Shown here one piece after another: positions 1 to 6,295 of a stretch of DNA of 7,854 nucleotides (position 1 is its first letter; each line of letters starts with the position of its first letter). The notes below the pieces were generated by a model, which did no database searches, had not been told where the DNA came from, and saw nothing but the letters and a program-made list of their open reading frames with translations. The position numbers were made by a program, and so were the translations under genes. Origin of the DNA: Candidatus Bipolaricaulota bacterium (GTDB lineage: Bacteria; Bipolaricaulota; Bipolaricaulia; UBA7950; UBA9294); contig JAGYNL010000148.1 of assembly GCA_018399865.1 (NCBI GenBank), positions 1 through 7,854 of the forward strand, written 5' to 3'.

Positions 1-708
1 CTTCTCCACAAAGACACCCTTGACAGTTGCACTTGGAAGTTGAACCCAAGAGATGTCCTGAGGATCCAGCCGGTGTTTATCGGTAGCGGCCCTTCGGATC
101 CAGACGCTACTGGAACCGCATTCAATACGCTAATGAACCACGCCCATGATATTTGGAACCGCTGCGGGAGTGTTCGCTGCATCAAGTTTGCTGTTAACGA
201 TCCAATCTATGTGAATAACAGCGCTTATCGCGTACTCGACAACTCCTCTGAGGCAGCTAATCTAAGAGGAGAGGTCAACGTGACCAACGCTGTTGAGGTT
301 TTCGTTGTCGACCGAGTGTCCACAAGCGTTGCCTGCTTGTGGGGAGGCGGGGCATGCTTCTCCTCGGGAACAGCTTCGGCAAAGATTATGAGCTGCGATC
401 AGCAGATGGCCGTGCCATGCCCCTGCCCAAGTGCCTGCACAGGATTCTGTCCCTGCGGAGCCTGTCTATGTGGAGCAATCAGTCACTGTCACCTTGCCCA
501 CGAGCTGGGTCACGCACTGAACCTCGCGCATCCACCCGGGCCAAGCGGAGGCCTTGCCGCCACTACAGTCAACTCGAACATGGAGCCCAGTGGCTTTTGC
601 TGCGACAATCCCGATATGCAAAGCGCTAAGAACTGCCGCAATGCTAGTAACCCTCTCTTATCCGTGCTTCTTAGTATCTGTGATGGCAGCCCTGACATCA
701 ATGACTAA
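1..708 (+). CDS. Metzincin-like zinc metalloprotease, 5' end outside window
   Basis: The frame is open to the left edge, so the TTG at 40 is not a convincing start and the true N-terminus, including any signal peptide, is upstream. Numbering from codon 40, the active-site helix is HELGHALNLAH at residues 154-164 (nt 499-531). It carries three candidate zinc-binding His (154, 158, 164) and the general base Glu155. Met181, in an NSNMEPSG stretch 17 residues downstream, is a plausible Met-turn. Both features define the metzincin clan (matrixin/reprolysin-like). The usual Gly of HExxHxxGxxH is Asn161, a residue that can take the same backbone turn. Residues 127-144 hold seven Cys in a CPCPSACTGFCPCGACLC pattern, with another Cys at 150 and about 17 in the visible protein, suggesting a secreted, disulfide-bonded enzyme. 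The exact family cannot be assigned and the substrate is unknown. The gene ends with TAA and a hairpin follows. Confidence 0.75.
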   Translation, partial: LLHKDTLDSCTWKLNPRDVLRIQPVFIGSGPSDPDATGTAFNTLMNHAHDIWNRCGSVRCIKFAVNDPIYVNNSAYRVLDNSSEAANLRGEVNVTNAVEVFVVDRVSTSVACLWGGGACFSSGTASAKIMSCDQQMAVPCPCPSACTGFCPCGACLCGAISHCHLAHELGHALNLAHPPGPSGGLAATTVNSNMEPSGFCCDNPDMQSAKNCRNASNPLLSVLLSICDGSPDIND

Positions 709-1154: not shown

Positions 1155-1218
1155 GTCCTTAATCAAGCAGATCTCTCGTGCTATTCTCTTGTTTGGTCAT
1201 CTCTGGTACACTACGTAC

Positions 1219-1875
1219 ATGGCTCGCATAGCTCGGGTCGTTGTGCCCGGTACACCGCACCACGTCACGCAACGCGGAGTAAGACGGATGGATGTATTCT
1301 TTTCCGATGATGACCGGCGTGCCTATATCAGATTCCTTTCGGAGCAGGGCAAACGGTTCGGTCTGCGCTATCTTGCCTGGTGTCTAATGACAAACCACGT
1401 ACATCTCATCGTCATACCGGAGACGCAAACAAGTCTGGCAAAAGGCATCGGCGAGGCCCACAAACGATACACGCGTATGATCGACTTCCGTGAAGGCTGG
1501 CGCAGCTACCTTTTCCAGGGACGCTTTTTCTGGTGCCCACTTGAAGAATCCTATGCAATTGCTGCAATTCGCTACGTTCTTCGCAATCCTGTTCGTGCCA
1601 AGATCGTCACGCAGGCTTGGTCATACCGTTGGTCAAATGCCGTGTGGCTTGTGGGTGACAAAGAAGACGACCCGCTCGTGAAAGGATCTTCATTATTCCA
1701 GGAGGTTGATAACTGGCGGGACCTTCTTTCTGTTGACCCTGATGAATCAAATAACATTCGGCTTAACACGACGACTGGTAGACCAATAGGGGATAGAACT
1801 TTCGTGGAGAGTGTGGAACAGTTGACTGGACGCACTCTTCGCGTGCACGAGGCTGGCCGCAGGCCGGATAAATAA
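1219..1875 (+). CDS. REP-associated/IS200-like Y1 transposase
   Basis: A 218-residue single-strand DNA transposase of the Y1_Tnp (TnpA_REP/RAYT-like) family. The N-terminus MARIARVVVPGTPHHVTQRG matches the usual family start, so ATG 1219 is preferred over an upstream TTG at 1189, which would add ten atypical residues. The HUH metal-binding motif is MTNHVHLIV (His60, His62). The catalytic Tyr is Tyr84 in AHKRYTRM, followed by a YLFQGRFFW segment and RYVLRNPVRA at about 118-127, all characteristic. The C-terminal tail TGRPIGDRTFVESVEQLTGR is typical of the longer RAYT-like subgroup. Length is normal and all core residues are present, so the protein could be active. No good Shine-Dalgarno sequence precedes the ATG. 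The permease fusion begins 54 bp downstream in the same direction. A decayed relative of this gene's 3' half lies at 6058-6258. Confidence 0.9.
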   Translation: MARIARVVVPGTPHHVTQRGVRRMDVFFSDDDRRAYIRFLSEQGKRFGLRYLAWCLMTNHVHLIVIPETQTSLAKGIGEAHKRYTRMIDFREGWRSYLFQGRFFWCPLEESYAIAAIRYVLRNPVRAKIVTQAWSYRWSNAVWLVGDKEDDPLVKGSSLFQEVDNWRDLLSVDPDESNNIRLNTTTGRPIGDRTFVESVEQLTGRTLRVHEAGRRPDK

Positions 1876-1890
1876 GGTATGTGTCCCCGG
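1789..1890 (+). repeat. Direct repeat copy A: 3' end of Y1 transposase plus right terminus
   Basis: About 100 bp, covering the last codons of the transposase and the terminal GGTATGTGTCCCCGG (1876-1890), match 6184-6289 in the same orientation with scattered substitutions and small indels. A short hairpin (GGCC-GCA-GGCC, extended to 1853-1867) lies just before the stop codon. It is not conserved in the second copy. Homology ends at about 1889, marking the element boundary. Confidence 0.7.
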
Positions 1891-1929
1891 AATAATGAAG
1901 CTACAGGAAGCAGGCTTGCTATCATATCG

Positions 1930-4900
1930 ATGCCGCTTGTTGAGAGAAGCGTCCTGATAGTTCTTGTTGGATTAGTAACGATCTGGTTTACTCTCTTTGC
2001 GTTAGATCTTGCCCGGGGCACGCCAGCCGTGCAGGCCCTAAACCAGGCTGGGCAAGGATTCGTCGACTACATTACGAACCTTATACACGGAGATCTTGGC
2101 AAGACATCGTCCGGAGGGCCAACCTCTCTTAGAAGACCTGTTTCCTGTGTACTGGCCGAAACCCTTCCTCGGAGCATAGGGCTTCTGGGTATCACGATGG
2201 GTGTCTCTATGTTGGTCGGAATCTTTGTCGGCATTCTAGCAGCAACATCTGCCGGTCGGTTTGGCTCTTCTGTTATACTTGTCTTGTCTACCCTTGGAGT
2301 CTCAATACCCAGTTTCTTTCTTGCTCTGCTTTTTCAGATGCTGGTTGTCAAGATAACGCGAACGTTCGGGTACTCAATTCTGCCAACGGGCGGGTTCGGA
2401 TGGGATGGACATTTCGTTCTTCCAGCAATGGTTCTTGCAGCTCGTCCTCTAGCTCAGATCGCCAGGATAACCTACCTCAAAACCCGGGAGACCATGGACC
2501 AAAACTTCGTTAGGACAGCCCTCTCCAAGGGCTTGAACATCGGAGCTCTTCTAAGGCGGCACATAGCACGGAACATTGCTATCCCTGTTCTTACAACAGC
2601 AGCTGTGTCCCTGCGGTTTGCCCTGGGAGGCCTGCCTATTGTTGAAGCTTACTTTGGCTGGCCGGGAGCAGGACTTAAGCTTCTGCGGGCTATCTCGAAT
2701 CAGGATGATAATCTTACGGTGGCACTCCTTCTTTCTCTGGCCTTGTTCTTCATCATAATACAACTCTTCCTAGAAGCTTCATACCGCCTTTTTGATCCGC
2801 GCGTAGGCGAGATAGCTCACATGCGTAACGAGCAGCGCCCATCAATCCGAGGCGCGGCAGCAGCAATGACGGATATCTTTTCATCCCTCATGGAGCACAC
2901 AATGGGCTGGCTTCGATACGTAGGGCAGTCAATTCGTAGATATCATCCAGCATGGCCGACTTTCCAGCTGCCTTCTCATCGCTATAAGCAGGGCTTACGG
3001 CACTTGCTTAAGAGGCTAAACATCCCTCTTCTTGTTGGAGGTTCGCTGTGCCTTGGTTTACTTGTGGTTATTTTTTTCGGATCACGCCTAGCGCCACATG
3101 ATCCTTACCGTCTTGTAGGGCTTGAGAAGGTTGATGGAACGTGGATGGCTCCTCCTTTTGAGCCGAGCAGGCGCTTTCCTTGGGGAACAGATGCCCTTGG
3201 GCGTGGCCTGTTAAGCCTTATTCTTACCGGCGCTCAACAAACTCTATTCTTAGCATCCGTAGCAGTCGCGTTCCGGATGCTTATTGGAACTGTACTAGGC
3301 ATAGTGGCTGGATGGTGGCGGGGGTCACTCTTGGATCGAGCGATCACGGGGCTTGCCCAGACGATCAAGCCATTCCCAATTGTGCTTTTAACCATGCTGA
3401 TCATACTTGCCGTTGGCATCCGCCAGGGTGTATTGCCCTTTGTTGTAGGTCTATGTGCCGTCGGCTGGGGTGAGCTGGAACAGTTCATCCGCGCTGAGGT
3501 TATGGCTCTTCGCTCACGCCCCTTCGTGGAAAGCACGAAGGCCATGGGAGCAACAAGCCCACATATACTAGCTTTTCACATCTTCCCTCATCTGGCTCCA
3601 TCCCTCATGGCGCTCCTGGCAATGGAGTTTGCAGGTGTCTTGATACTGCTTGCTGAGCTCGGTTTTCTGGGCATATTCCTCGGTGGCGGAGCATATATGG
3701 AGATGGAGATGTTCAAACCTCCGCTTCACTATTCCGATGTCCCAGAGTGGGGATCGCTTCTCGCCAATTTTCGTCAGGCGGCTCAGTCTAAGCCTTGGCT
3801 AGGGATCTATCCATCACTTGCCATATTCGTCTCTGCTCTAGGCTTCCAGCTTATGGGCGAGGGTATCCGGCTGGAGATCGAACGTGGTCACATCTTCCTG
3901 AAGCGAATTCTCAATCGGTATACCCTTACGATAGGGGCTATCGCCGCGCTGATTCTGTATCTTCTCTCAGGTAATCTCGGATCAGGTGCTCTTTATAGGC
4001 AGTATGCCAACCAATTCGATGTCGATGCAGCAATGTCTCATGTATCCTTTTTGACGCAGGCAGAGCTGGGAGGTCGAGAGGTTGGCACACCAGGCGCTGA
4101 GGCTAGCGCAGACTGGATTGCGGATACTTTCGACGGTCTTGGCCTGCAAGCGATTGGTCAAGACAATAGCTATTTCCTGGAGACATATGGCGGGGTAGAG
4201 CGCCTAACCGGGATTCCTGTTCTGGAGCTAAGTGATGAAGGTCCGCCTCTCCAATATACAGAGGATTTTGCAGAATACGTCGACCAGTTCCGCTGCCTTG
4301 GCGAGGTAGAAGGCCGGATTCGATTTGTCTCATTCGGGGAGTCTCCGTCTTGGGGCAGAATGGATGTCAGCAGCTTTAGAAATTTCGATCTATCCCAGGA
4401 TGTGATTATGGTTCTATCGCCCGAGGAAGCTGAGTTACTGTCACTAAGGGAGTGTGCGGGTGTCCTCGTGGTGGCAAATGATCCTGATATGATAAGGAGA
4501 AGCTCAATCCTTTCTCCTGAAAGTAGGGTGGGAATAAGCCTTAGCTCCGTATCAGCATCCGAAGACCGCCCCTCGTTCTGGATATCAGAAGAGATAGCCG
4601 AACGCATACTTGCAGGATCAGATTTCACCCTGGACCAACTCCGCAAGCGCGTTCCCGAGATCGATGCACGTGATCCTCTAACGTTTGTTCTTCCATCCTC
4701 TGCTCATATGAAAGCCACAGGAAAGATAGAGCAGGATCTGGAGATTAGGCACGTGATAGGCTGGATTCCCGGGCTCAAAGGGAACCCGCGCGATCAGATG
4801 GACGACAAGGTGATAGCGATCCTGGCTCAGTACGATACCGCTCCTTCCCGCCCTGGATCCGGGGCAAGTCAGGGGGCAAATAACAACGCTAGCGGTATCG

Positions 4901-5421
4901 CCGTGCTGCTTGAGGTGTGCCGTCTCTTGACTCAGACAGAGTATTGGCCCAATAGAAGTTTCCTGGTCGTCGCAAGAAGCGTCACCGGGTGGAACGGCGG
5001 AGAACTGCGCGTTGAGCCAGACGCACAGTGGTTCCTAGATCGATCATCCCTTCCAGCTCAGTTCTTCGATATTGAAGCTGTATTGCGCTTGCGCGGGCTT
5101 GGGACAGGCACATCATCCAGTTTGGCCGTTGAGACCTCAGGTGGTATGCGCCTGTCTAACCTCCTGCGATCCTCCGCATCTAGTATGGGCGAACGTATGG
5201 CTGTGGTAGAAACACCGACTGATCTAAGCACCCTCTTTTCAGGTAAGTCCATCATGGAAAACGCAGATGCAGCACCGGAAGCAATACTATCTTGCCAGGG
5301 ATGGCAAGAAGCAACACAGCCATCAGACCCGTTTGCAGCAGTTACCCCAGAAAATTTGGGCAGAGCAGGCAGAGTTGCTTCTTTCGCCGCGATGATCCTA
5401 GGCCGCGAAGCAAGATACTGA
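1930..5421 (+). CDS. Fused DppB-DppC-type ABC permease with C-terminal M28 peptidase-like domain
   Basis: A 1163-residue fusion (numbered from ATG 1930). Residues 1-296 form a DppB-type permease: first membrane helix at about 8-28, a HGDLGK periplasmic motif, and the EAA loop VRTALSKG...HIARNIAIP at 192-219. A basic cytoplasmic linker (about 297-363) leads to a DppC-type permease: first helix at about 365-386, the periplasmic signature PWGTDALGRG at 417-426, and the EAA loop FVESTKAMGATSP at 532-544. One further helix (about 665-683) would export the rest. From about 697 the chain resembles an M28 aminopeptidase with a possible PA-like insert (about 760-905). Its metal ligands look replaced: Q967 for His (AQYDT), N985 for Asp (GANNNASG), S1017/V1018 for Glu-Glu, R1055 for Asp, and no C-terminal His (TQPSD at 1129-1133). 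An upstream ATG (1879) adds 17 atypical residues encoded by the transposon end. No ATPase or binding-protein gene is adjacent. The substrate is probably a peptide, by family only. Confidence 0.87.
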   Translation: MPLVERSVLIVLVGLVTIWFTLFALDLARGTPAVQALNQAGQGFVDYITNLIHGDLGKTSSGGPTSLRRPVSCVLAETLPRSIGLLGITMGVSMLVGIFVGILAATSAGRFGSSVILVLSTLGVSIPSFFLALLFQMLVVKITRTFGYSILPTGGFGWDGHFVLPAMVLAARPLAQIARITYLKTRETMDQNFVRTALSKGLNIGALLRRHIARNIAIPVLTTAAVSLRFALGGLPIVEAYFGWPGAGLKLLRAISNQDDNLTVALLLSLALFFIIIQLFLEASYRLFDPRVGEIAHMRNEQRPSIRGAAAAMTDIFSSLMEHTMGWLRYVGQSIRRYHPAWPTFQLPSHRYKQGLRHLLKRLNIPLLVGGSLCLGLLVVIFFGSRLAPHDPYRLVGLEKVDGTWMAPPFEPSRRFPWGTDALGRGLLSLILTGAQQTLFLASVAVAFRMLIGTVLGIVAGWWRGSLLDRAITGLAQTIKPFPIVLLTMLIILAVGIRQGVLPFVVGLCAVGWGELEQFIRAEVMALRSRPFVESTKAMGATSPHILAFHIFPHLAPSLMALLAMEFAGVLILLAELGFLGIFLGGGAYMEMEMFKPPLHYSDVPEWGSLLANFRQAAQSKPWLGIYPSLAIFVSALGFQLMGEGIRLEIERGHIFLKRILNRYTLTIGAIAALILYLLSGNLGSGALYRQYANQFDVDAAMSHVSFLTQAELGGREVGTPGAEASADWIADTFDGLGLQAIGQDNSYFLETYGGVERLTGIPVLELSDEGPPLQYTEDFAEYVDQFRCLGEVEGRIRFVSFGESPSWGRMDVSSFRNFDLSQDVIMVLSPEEAELLSLRECAGVLVVANDPDMIRRSSILSPESRVGISLSSVSASEDRPSFWISEEIAERILAGSDFTLDQLRKRVPEIDARDPLTFVLPSSAHMKATGKIEQDLEIRHVIGWIPGLKGNPRDQMDDKVIAILAQYDTAPSRPGSGASQGANNNASGIAVLLEVCRLLTQTEYWPNRSFLVVARSVTGWNGGELRVEPDAQWFLDRSSLPAQFFDIEAVLRLRGLGTGTSSSLAVETSGGMRLSNLLRSSASSMGERMAVVETPTDLSTLFSGKSIMENADAAPEAILSCQGWQEATQPSDPFAAVTPENLGRAGRVASFAAMILGREARY

Positions 5422-6057
5422 ACTTCGGGTCTGCATCAAGACAAGACAGCCCCGATCCGTTGAGCCAAGCAACCTCTTGAGCAATGAGGAGCCTTGTCTG
5501 CTTAGAGCTTCAAAGTATATAGTTTCAGAGCACAAGAAGATTGCAAGGGCAGTATGCATTTCTAAAGCCAGCAGTACTTGAAGAACACCAAAGGAGACCA
5601 AATAACAAAGCCGAATATTATGGGAATTCTCAGATCAAGCCTATCGGAGTTGTTCAGACAGCAAGCGATATACACAAGATGGACATTGTAGGCGTCCGGC
5701 ACCGCTTCGCAACGATCAGGTCCTCAATTGATAACTGCATGGAAGGCAGGAGCTACAAGCGATAGACATAAGCGACATCTCTTCCGAAAATGCATCTCTG
5801 CCAAGCCACAGTCAAGGTAACAGCAATCGGAGCTGCGCCCATTTGTGCCTTCATAGAAGTCCCGACAGCAAGAAGACTATATGGAGTGTTCACCCGCAAG
5901 GTTGCCAAAGGCTATAAGAAGGTCTAGGATCACATTGAACAGTGGATCGATATGTCTGTTCTCAAATAGGAGAGGAGCTTTGATTCTTCGGCGATATTAT
6001 GAGTGCTTTGCTCGCATGGATGTTCCTGAGTGACTGCAGGATACATGCATCCCGTCA
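5422..6057. other. Gene-poor stretch with no convincing coding region
   Basis: About 640 bp after the permease fusion. The open frames here are short (at most about 74 codons), are broken by stops in every frame and resemble no family I recognise. One frame is open from 5857 to a TGA at 6031 and continues in phase into the transposase remnant at 6058-6255. This could be the degraded 5' part of that element, but I cannot align it to the intact copy. No terminator with a clear stem and T-tract, tRNA or CRISPR-like repeat was seen. Confidence 0.5.
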
Positions 6058-6258
6058 ATGGAGAAACTGATTAGTGGTGCACGAATGGTAGTCAGCAAAA
6101 TCGTTTCCGGTCTTCGAAATGCCGTTCGGACTGGGATCTTAGGAGAGGCGGGTTCCTCTTTAAGCAATAATCCGCAGGTCCATGGGGATGATAGATCCTT
6201 CGTGGAGAGCGTGGAACCGTTAACTGGACGAACTCTTCCGCTTGCACAAGGCTGAGCG
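6058..6258 (+). pseudogene. Decayed second Y1 transposase, 3' part only
   Basis: A 65-codon frame whose second half is related to the transposase at 1219-1875. GLRNAVRTGIL (from nt 6109) aligns with VLRNPVRAKIV of the intact protein, and GDDRSFVESVEPLTGRTL (from about 6187) with GDRTFVESVEQLTGRTL. The roughly 40 residues between these blocks in the intact protein are reduced to about a dozen here, implying an internal deletion. A 1-bp difference near the end shifts the frame so that it stops early (TGA 6253-6255). The HUH motif and catalytic Tyr are absent, and the in-phase upstream frame carries a TGA at 6031. It cannot encode an active transposase. It marks an older insertion of a related element whose left end I could not find. 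Confidence 0.68.
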
Positions 6259-6289
6259 GAAATCAGAGAAATAGGGTATGTGTCCCCCG
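6184..6289 (+). repeat. Direct repeat copy B: decayed transposase 3' end plus right terminus
   Basis: Same orientation as 1789-1890. The core TTCGTGGAGAG, GTGGAAC and ACTGGACG blocks and the terminal GGTATGTGTCCCC (6275-6287) are shared, with substitutions between them. Similarity ends at about 6289, and the opposing gene's stop codon lies at 6296-6298. The element therefore inserted immediately beyond the 3' end of that gene without disrupting it. Confidence 0.7.
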
Positions 6290-6295
6290 ATTTAA

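What the first reader, a model, noticed from the sequence alone, without database searches (positions are those of the whole stretch)
1930..5421. Single-gene fusion of both dipeptide-type permeases and an M28 peptidase-like domain
DppB and DppC homologues are normally separate proteins that form a heterodimer. Here they are joined head to tail through a roughly 65-residue cytoplasmic linker, and one extra membrane helix then exports a roughly 465-residue peptidase-like domain. The topology is consistent: two six-helix permeases end in the cytoplasm and one added helix puts the last domain outside. A transporter carrying its own tethered peptide-handling domain suggests substrate capture or processing coupled to import. 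I do not know of a described system with this layout, though similar fusions may exist unreported in environmental genomes.
Basis: partly seen in the sequence, partly recalled or inferred. Interest (0 to 1): 0.8.

Follow-up and report, generated by a model that had tools for sequence, protein, structure and literature searches.

The report
Peptide importer with built-in dead aminopeptidase
One bacterial gene carries both membrane halves of a peptide-type importer plus a tethered outside domain that looks like an aminopeptidase but has lost its metal site; it belongs to a group of importers that may have replaced the usual free-floating peptide catcher by built-in outer domains.

Summary
The fusion is real. 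Window ORF 1879-5421 (likely start 1930) encodes DppB-like, DppC-like, anchor helix and M28-fold ectodomain in one frame. It is not unique: 361 proteins match its permease part (best 120 listed); those with names are Bipolaricaulota, Chloroflexota or a 'Thermotogota' bin.

Three things go beyond the finding. (1) The M28 domain is a pseudo-peptidase: in 110 of 110 long family proteins (window included) the first zinc His, zinc Glu and zinc Asp are replaced or gapped, and none keeps the EE pair. (2) The DppB half lacks the scoop region that enters the binding protein in E. coli: TM1 start to GDLG is 47 residues in 101 of 104 measured, typically 66 in ordinary DppB. (3) The sister branch of its DppC carries a beta-propeller at the same place.

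Most likely: a Dpp/Opp-type importer whose tethered dead aminopeptidase is a built-in receptor or lid, with ATPases supplied in trans. Architecture and dead site are shown at sequence level; the receptor role is inferred. Peptide processing is not supported.

The parts
1879..5421 (+). Whole ORF, 1180 aa (from 1930: 1163 aa): DppB-like + linker + DppC-like + anchor helix + M28-like ectodomain
1930..2811 (+). DppB-like permease half (residues 18-311); BPD_transp_1 best stretch residues 114-309
   Evidence: solved relatives by profile include DppB and OppB chains
2014..2088 (+). TM1-to-GDLG segment (residues 46-70), part of a stretch about 19 residues shorter than in ordinary DppB: the scoop-motif region is missing
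   Evidence: no PF19300 match
2509..2574 (+). DppB coupling (EAA/'RTA') motif, residues 211-232, kept
2812..3012 (+). Linker between the two permease halves (residues 312-378), variable in sequence and length
   Evidence: low pLDDT
3013..3888 (+). DppC-like permease half (residues 379-670)
3673..3747 (+). Enlarged external loop of the DppC half (residues 599-623, GFLG to PEWG)
3916..3981 (+). Extra membrane helix anchoring the ectodomain (residues 680-701), preceded by a basic stretch
3982..5418 (+). M28-fold ectodomain (residues 702-1180) with an insert at about 4174-4689 where M28 enzymes such as YwaD carry their PA domain (assignment of the insert is inference)
4828..5094 (+). Remains of the metal site: Q984 for His, N1002 for bridging Asp, residues 1034-1038 (SVTGW) for the EE motif, R1072 for zinc Asp

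Best explanation
The gene encodes the complete membrane part of a Dpp/Opp-type ABC importer in one chain. Its outer face has been rebuilt: the DppB scoop that works with a soluble DppA-type binding protein is gone, the DppC half has a longer outer loop, and DppC is continued by an anchor helix and a tethered M28-fold ectodomain without a working metal site. I propose that the dead aminopeptidase is the built-in receptor or lid, binding peptide termini or a peptide-bearing partner in its re-modelled pocket and handing substrate to the DppB/DppC pore, while DppD/DppF-type ATPases encoded elsewhere in the genome power it through the retained coupling motifs. Shown: architecture, missing scoop, dead site, clade. 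Inferred: receptor role, peptide as substrate, ATPases in trans.
For: Fold and topology. Metal site: 0-3 of 6 positions kept in 110 long family proteins, window included, and replaced consistently rather than at random: in 70 less redundant sequences His1 is Q in 64 and zinc Asp is R in 62, against a median majority frequency of 0.57 per column. Scoop region: 47 residues in 101 of 104 measured fused proteins (119 given) against 66 in 11 of 18 correctly anchored ordinary DppB rows, range 65-89; none of the 22 DppB halves of the family listed is among the 141 PF19300 matches in the same 22 genomes. In E. coli the scoop (residues 32-62) occupies the DppA cleft and seals the cavity; its deletion leaves about a quarter of the ATPase activity and the authors read it as inefficient transport (PMC12136057, passages including the abstract, and one whole section, read). 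Coupling motif kept in DppB (R[TML]A..KG in 115 of 120). Dpp-type ATPases (PF08352) in 22 of 22 genomes, and directly upstream in locus L001. Same tethering plan in OpuA: SBD joined to the TMD by an anchoring helix and a short linker (PMC11065425, passages read).
Against: No ligand, transport or interaction data. E. coli DppB without its scoop still works in part with DppA, and point mutations in the scoop loop leave uptake intact, so a missing scoop does not prove that no soluble binding protein is used. L001 and L021 sit beside a binding-protein gene (SBP_bac_5 in L001; its relative in L021), and in G009 an SBP_bac_5 gene lies on the same contig about 14 kb away. The gene is usually an orphan, so ATPase partnership is unproven. 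The strict DppC coupling regex matched only 87 of 120. One Chloroflexota subgroup keeps Asp, Glu and His and could still bind one metal. A Glu stands at the catalytic position in 94 of 110 by the alignment, though not in the window.
Confidence: 0.47

Rival explanations
1. The transporter still uses a soluble SBP_bac_5 binding protein; the tethered dead aminopeptidase is a docking platform, cap or regulator that replaced only the scoop's sealing function.
For: Binding-protein gene next to L001 and L021 and 14 kb away in G009; 9-13 SBP_bac_5 matches in each of four genomes searched; E. coli DppB without scoop keeps part of its activity with DppA.
Against: In the better assembled genomes G105 and G116 no SBP_bac_5 match lies on the contig of the fused gene. 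The missing scoop is a part that contacts DppA.
Confidence: 0.28
2. Receptor or transceptor rather than bulk importer: the ectodomain senses an outside ligand and the permease scaffold passes the signal, perhaps through N-terminal or neighbouring TPR proteins.
For: Orphan genes, different ectodomains at one place (M28, beta-propeller), TPR domains in P0052 and P0060 and a TPR gene between dppF and the fused gene in L001.
Against: Coupling motif of DppB kept in 115 of 120; DppC half close to a transporting fold; no signalling domain in the window protein.
Confidence: 0.13
3. One reading: the M28 domain is an active peptidase that trims peptides for import.
For: M28 fold and Pfam score over the cut-off; fully equipped M28 proteins lie near split relatives in L019 and L020.
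Against: Metal site incomplete in 23 of 23 permease-joined copies (1-4 of 6 positions) and in 110 of 110 (0-3 of 6), the two sets overlapping; EE pair absent in 110 of 110.
Confidence: 0.07
4. Assembly artefact or pseudogene.
For: A transposase element abuts the 5' end; single record, no own genome held.
Against: Open frame with 57-65% identity to 12 relatives over the full alignment and the same layout in other assemblies.
Confidence: 0.02

Closest known systems
DppABCDF / OppABCDF (type I peptide ABC importers)
   Different: Single chain; scoop region missing; enlarged DppC outer loop; extra helix and ectodomain; ATPase and binding-protein genes mostly not alongside
OpuA and GlnPQ (importers with covalently joined binding domains)
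   Same: Extracytoplasmic domain covalently joined to the membrane domain; in OpuA through an anchoring helix and short linker (PMC11065425, passages read; for GlnPQ, PMC8025302, only the start of the abstract in the listing)
   Different: Their joined domain is a substrate-binding domain and their membrane domains are of other families (recalled); here the domain has an M28 or propeller fold
M28 aminopeptidases with PA insert (2ek8, YwaD/BSAP 6hc6, PaAP)
   Different: Metal ligands and EE pair lost
Non-catalytic M28-fold ectodomains: transferrin receptor 1, nicalin/nicastrin
   Different: Eukaryotic; not part of a transporter (recalled)
DppC-beta-propeller permeases of Chloroflexota (annotated 'PQQ-binding-like beta-propeller repeat protein')
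   Same: Sister branch by DppC core; extra domain at the same place; enlarged outer loop in 104 of 104 measured, 123 given; shortened TM1-GDLG segment in the one DppB partner measured (55 residues, L034)
   Different: PQQ_2/BamB-like propeller instead of M28; DppB not fused in the four loci examined; no description found in the papers searched

Membership tests
Dpp/Opp-type ABC importer permease | Two BPD_transp_1 permease domains of the DppB and DppC kinds | tested here: met
   the 25 NCBIfam models shown are all under their own cut-offs
Dpp/Opp-type ABC importer permease | Coupling (EAA) motifs for the ATPases | tested here: met
   DppB R[TML]A..KG in 115 of 120; DppC strict pattern in 87 of 120, the window's own reads VESTKAMGA and is missed by it
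Dpp/Opp-type ABC importer permease | DppB N-terminal region with scoop (PF19300) | tested here: not met
   no PF19300 match at E 0.1; segment 47 vs typically 66 residues; none of 22 family DppB halves among 141 matches
Dpp/Opp-type ABC importer permease | Encoded with ATPases and binding protein | tested here: not met
   none in the 7.9-kb window; Dpp-type ATPases directly beside the fused gene in 1 of 22 loci, L001; the list was cut and several loci end close to the gene
Dpp/Opp-type ABC importer permease | ATP-driven peptide uptake | not testable with these tools
   needs reconstitution
Peptidase family M28 | M28 fold and profile score | tested here: met
Peptidase family M28 | Five metal ligands and catalytic Glu | tested here: not met
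   window keeps 1 of 6 positions in one alignment and 0 of 6 in the other; of 110 long family proteins, window included, none has His1, zinc Glu or zinc Asp and none the EE pair
Peptidase family M28 | Peptidase activity | not testable with these tools
   assay needed
OpuA/GlnPQ-like importers with joined binding domain | Extracytoplasmic domain tethered to the permease by an anchor helix | tested here: met
   comparison
OpuA/GlnPQ-like importers with joined binding domain | Tethered domain has the substrate-binding-protein fold | tested here: inconclusive
   the domain matches the M28 fold along its length; a fold not listed there is not formally excluded

The most novel reading that the evidence does not exclude
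A clade of peptide-type ABC importers has given up the soluble binding protein: it lost the DppB scoop and evolved exchangeable built-in receptors on DppC (a dead aminopeptidase in one branch, a beta-propeller in the other), so that a former peptidase's active-site pocket now serves as the peptide-binding site of a transporter.
Probability: 0.36. Interest if true: 0.82.

Novelty: new variant of a known kind. Interest (0 to 1): 0.6.

Why it matters
Type I peptide importers depend on delivery from a separate or joined binding protein. An environmental clade that lacks the DppB scoop and carries non-SBP folds instead would make the question 'can the binding protein be replaced?' directly testable, would show enzyme-to-receptor conversion inside a transporter, and would clarify annotations that call such proteins PQQ-binding-like repeat proteins or simple permease subunits.

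Tried and rejected
Own-genome search: none held. Single-sequence scan of genome contigs: 8 pattern matches, no relative; the alignment scan gave 22 loci. Viral contigs: none. Rfam on the window: no match. Conserved gene neighbourhood across the set: not found; of 20 neighbours scanned (TPR, amidohydrolase, MacB/FtsX, HlyD, VIT/VWA, subtilase, propeller, RibD, aminotransferase, SBP_bac_5, FKBP, Rce1-like, beta-lactamase-like, creatininase, PfkB, radical SAM; 4 without a family) no kind recurs, but near relatives do share neighbours: L002 with L004 (two downstream genes), L010 with L012 and L014 (upstream MacB/FtsX gene), L015 with L016 and L002. Active peptidase: rejected at sequence level. Of the hits with inner stops, L026 was checked and is an ordinary DppB-DppC gene pair end to end; the others that stop before the M28 part were taken as the same and not counted. 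G140, counted as a member, has one stop inside. The catalytic Glu could not be placed uniquely: searches align it differently, so I rely on the EE pair and the other ligands. In one search, 29 of 42 DppB-like frames could be measured; 7 were anchored too late by my script (at the Arg after TM1) and dropped, 4 rows are two propeller or split partners seen twice each, 18 remain (two of them one gene). 15 of 119 rows, 1 of 120 and 19 of 123 rows and 16 of 26 ordinary DppC gave no measurement. The canonical rows included at least one spurious frame (L055) and were replaced. A first attempt at ordinary DppC loops found none. Of 361 and 500 protein matches (500 may be a cap) only the best 120 each were listed and used. 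Paper searches: searches gave 0 papers; others gave 110, 6 and 37, of which 15, 6 and 8 were listed, none of them evidently on this layout.

Full report

Is it one gene? Yes. A search with the M28 part gave the window and 12 relatives of 53-64% identity in that part, all with both Pfam domains; a search with the permease part gave 361 matches, best 120 listed, 110 of them, window included, longer than 1100 aa. Organism names given by sources are Bipolaricaulota, Chloroflexota (Anaerolineae, Promineifilaceae and others) and one 'Thermotogota' bin; most listed proteins bear none. A scan of one genome per species gave 22 loci: 3 Bipolaricaulota, 1 labelled Myxococcota, 18 Chloroflexota-type. Eighteen loci have the DppB-DppC-M28 order in one frame (L009 twice), L014 is incomplete at its DppB end, and L019, L020 and L021 have DppB as a separate gene and DppC joined to the M28-like part, which is cut by the contig end in L021. 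Among relatives, 3 of 60 of G002 and, by rows that reach the M28 part plus split G166, 18 of 101 of G009 have it at E 1e-60, so it is patchy.

The dead site. With three fully equipped separate M28 proteins as yardsticks (L019, L020 first domain, L040), 110 of 110 long family proteins lack His1 (Q in 101), zinc Asp (R in 98) and zinc Glu (gap in 110); they keep 0-3 of 6 positions, the window 0, and none has the EE pair. In the locus set, which overlaps this one, the 23 permease-joined copies keep 1-4 of 6, the window 1, by another alignment. A subgroup (L007, L009, L011, L013, L015-L018) keeps Asp, Glu and His, and L008, L010, L012 and L014 keep four positions; these could still hold a single metal, as glutaminyl cyclases do (recalled). 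So metal binding is not excluded there. The replaced residues are conserved: in 70 less redundant rows His1 is Q in 64 (88th percentile of columns) and zinc Asp is R in 62 (84th). I read this as a pocket kept for a new use; it is inference.

The missing scoop. In E. coli DppB, residues 32-62 between TM1 and helix alpha3 form a scoop that occupies the cleft of DppA and seals the cavity (PMC12136057, passages including the abstract, and one section, read). Deleting it leaves about a quarter of the ATPase activity, read by the authors as inefficient uptake; point mutants of its loop still take up the dipeptide. In the family the distance from the start of TM1 to the GDLG motif is 47 residues in 101 of 104 measured proteins (others 48 or 51; 119 given). 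In 18 correctly anchored ordinary DppB rows (two of them the same gene; from the loci fetched from these genomes and G053) it is 65-89, 66 in 11. PF19300, the Pfam model of this N-terminal region, has 141 matches in the 22 genomes but none at the 22 DppB halves of the family listed. The DppC half has a longer outer loop: FLG to PEWG spans 17-23 residues plus PE in 119 of 119 measured (120 given), against 8 plus one in 10 of 10 measured ordinary DppC (26 given).

A wider clade. Hits to the DppC half in relatives of G009 opened on a second architecture: DppC followed by a PQQ_2/BamB-like beta-propeller, in one case followed by DUF885 (L033-L036), with a separate DppB-like gene upstream; the one such DppB measured has a TM1-GDLG segment of 55 residues (L034). 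A search gave 500 such proteins (perhaps a cap), best 120 listed. The DppC-core tree of 75 rows of my choosing, with the loop columns removed, separates ordinary DppC (22 rows, 100/99) from the ectodomain-bearing DppC; within the latter, propeller (10 rows, 100/99) and M28 branches (43 rows, 98/94) part; the split M28 forms lie at the base of the M28 branch and the DppB-DppC fusion forms one group (38 rows, 93/70, only moderate); the window's 12-row clade (100/100) lies inside Chloroflexota-type sequences. Rooting is on the ordinary DppC, two of which have long branches. I read this as: outer face rebuilt first, ectodomain chosen or swapped, DppB fused later in the M28 branch, then transfer to Bipolaricaulota.

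Partners. Dpp-type ATPases (PF08352) occur in 22 of 22 genomes and 12 of 12 in a second set that shares G009, G013 and G017 with the first. They lie directly beside the fused gene only in L001: binding protein, dppB, dppC, dppD, dppF, a TPR gene, then the fused gene; in G133 a pair lies about 6 kb away on the other strand. The list was cut and several loci end near the gene, so others may be missed. L009 has another ABC ATPase about 4 kb upstream without the Opp-type motif, not followed up; further ATP-binding proteins near propeller or M28 loci were not identified. In the single-contig genome G145, with a propeller form, all five listed DppDF-type pairs sit near other permease genes and the nearest is about 90 kb from the propeller permease. 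Binding-protein genes: beside L001 and L021, 14 kb away on the same contig in G009, on other contigs in G105 and G116. ATPases in trans are therefore the simplest reading, unproven.

Mechanism. Best reading: the tethered ectodomain replaces the soluble binding protein or at least its lid role. OpuA shows that a binding domain joined to the membrane domain by an anchoring helix and short linker works (PMC11065425, passages read). What is shown: architecture, missing scoop, enlarged loop, dead site, clade. What is inferred: peptide as ligand, receptor role, ATPases in trans. The main doubt is whether a soluble binding protein is still used; the E. coli scoop-deletion result keeps that open.

Literature. 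Searches of the held library for fused permease/M28, DppB-DppC fusion, propeller-permease and Anaerolineae or Bipolaricaulota peptide transport gave nothing evidently on this architecture (listings only, some cut). Most subscription journals are not held.

Noticed in passing
window 1189-1875 and 6190-6290: REP-associated tyrosine (Y1) transposase gene directly upstream, and a diverged partial copy of its 3' end (88% over 49 nt, 77% over 52 nt) ending in the same GTATGTGTCCCC tail 4.4 kb downstream, so the fused gene lies between two copies of the element end. The upstream tail supplies the ATG at 1879.
   Followed up: partly
window 1-708: Incomplete ORF with HELGHALNLAH, a metzincin-like zinc motif (recalled), Cys-rich; no Pfam or NCBIfam match for 40-708.
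   Followed up: no
window 5422-6189: About 770 bases without an ORF of 80 aa or more, between the fused gene and the partial element copy.
   Followed up: no
L035:915-4919: DppC joined to a beta-propeller and then to a full DUF885 domain (474 bits) in one 1334-aa frame.
   Followed up: partly
L020:13845-18611 and L019:8859-10439: Separate M28 proteins near the split DppC-M28 genes: the one in L019 and the first domain in L020 keep all six active-site positions, the last domain in L020 keeps three.
   Followed up: partly
P0052, P0060, P0127; L001:5109-5570: TPR domains in some M28- or propeller-type fusions, and a TPR gene between dppF and the fused gene in L001.
   Followed up: no
L009:5712-13255: Two fused permease-M28 genes in tandem in Ornatilinea apprima strain P3M-1.
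   Followed up: no
L003:9908-13432: A contig labelled Myxococcota carries a copy inside the Bipolaricaulota-type clade: misbinned contig or further transfer.
   Followed up: no
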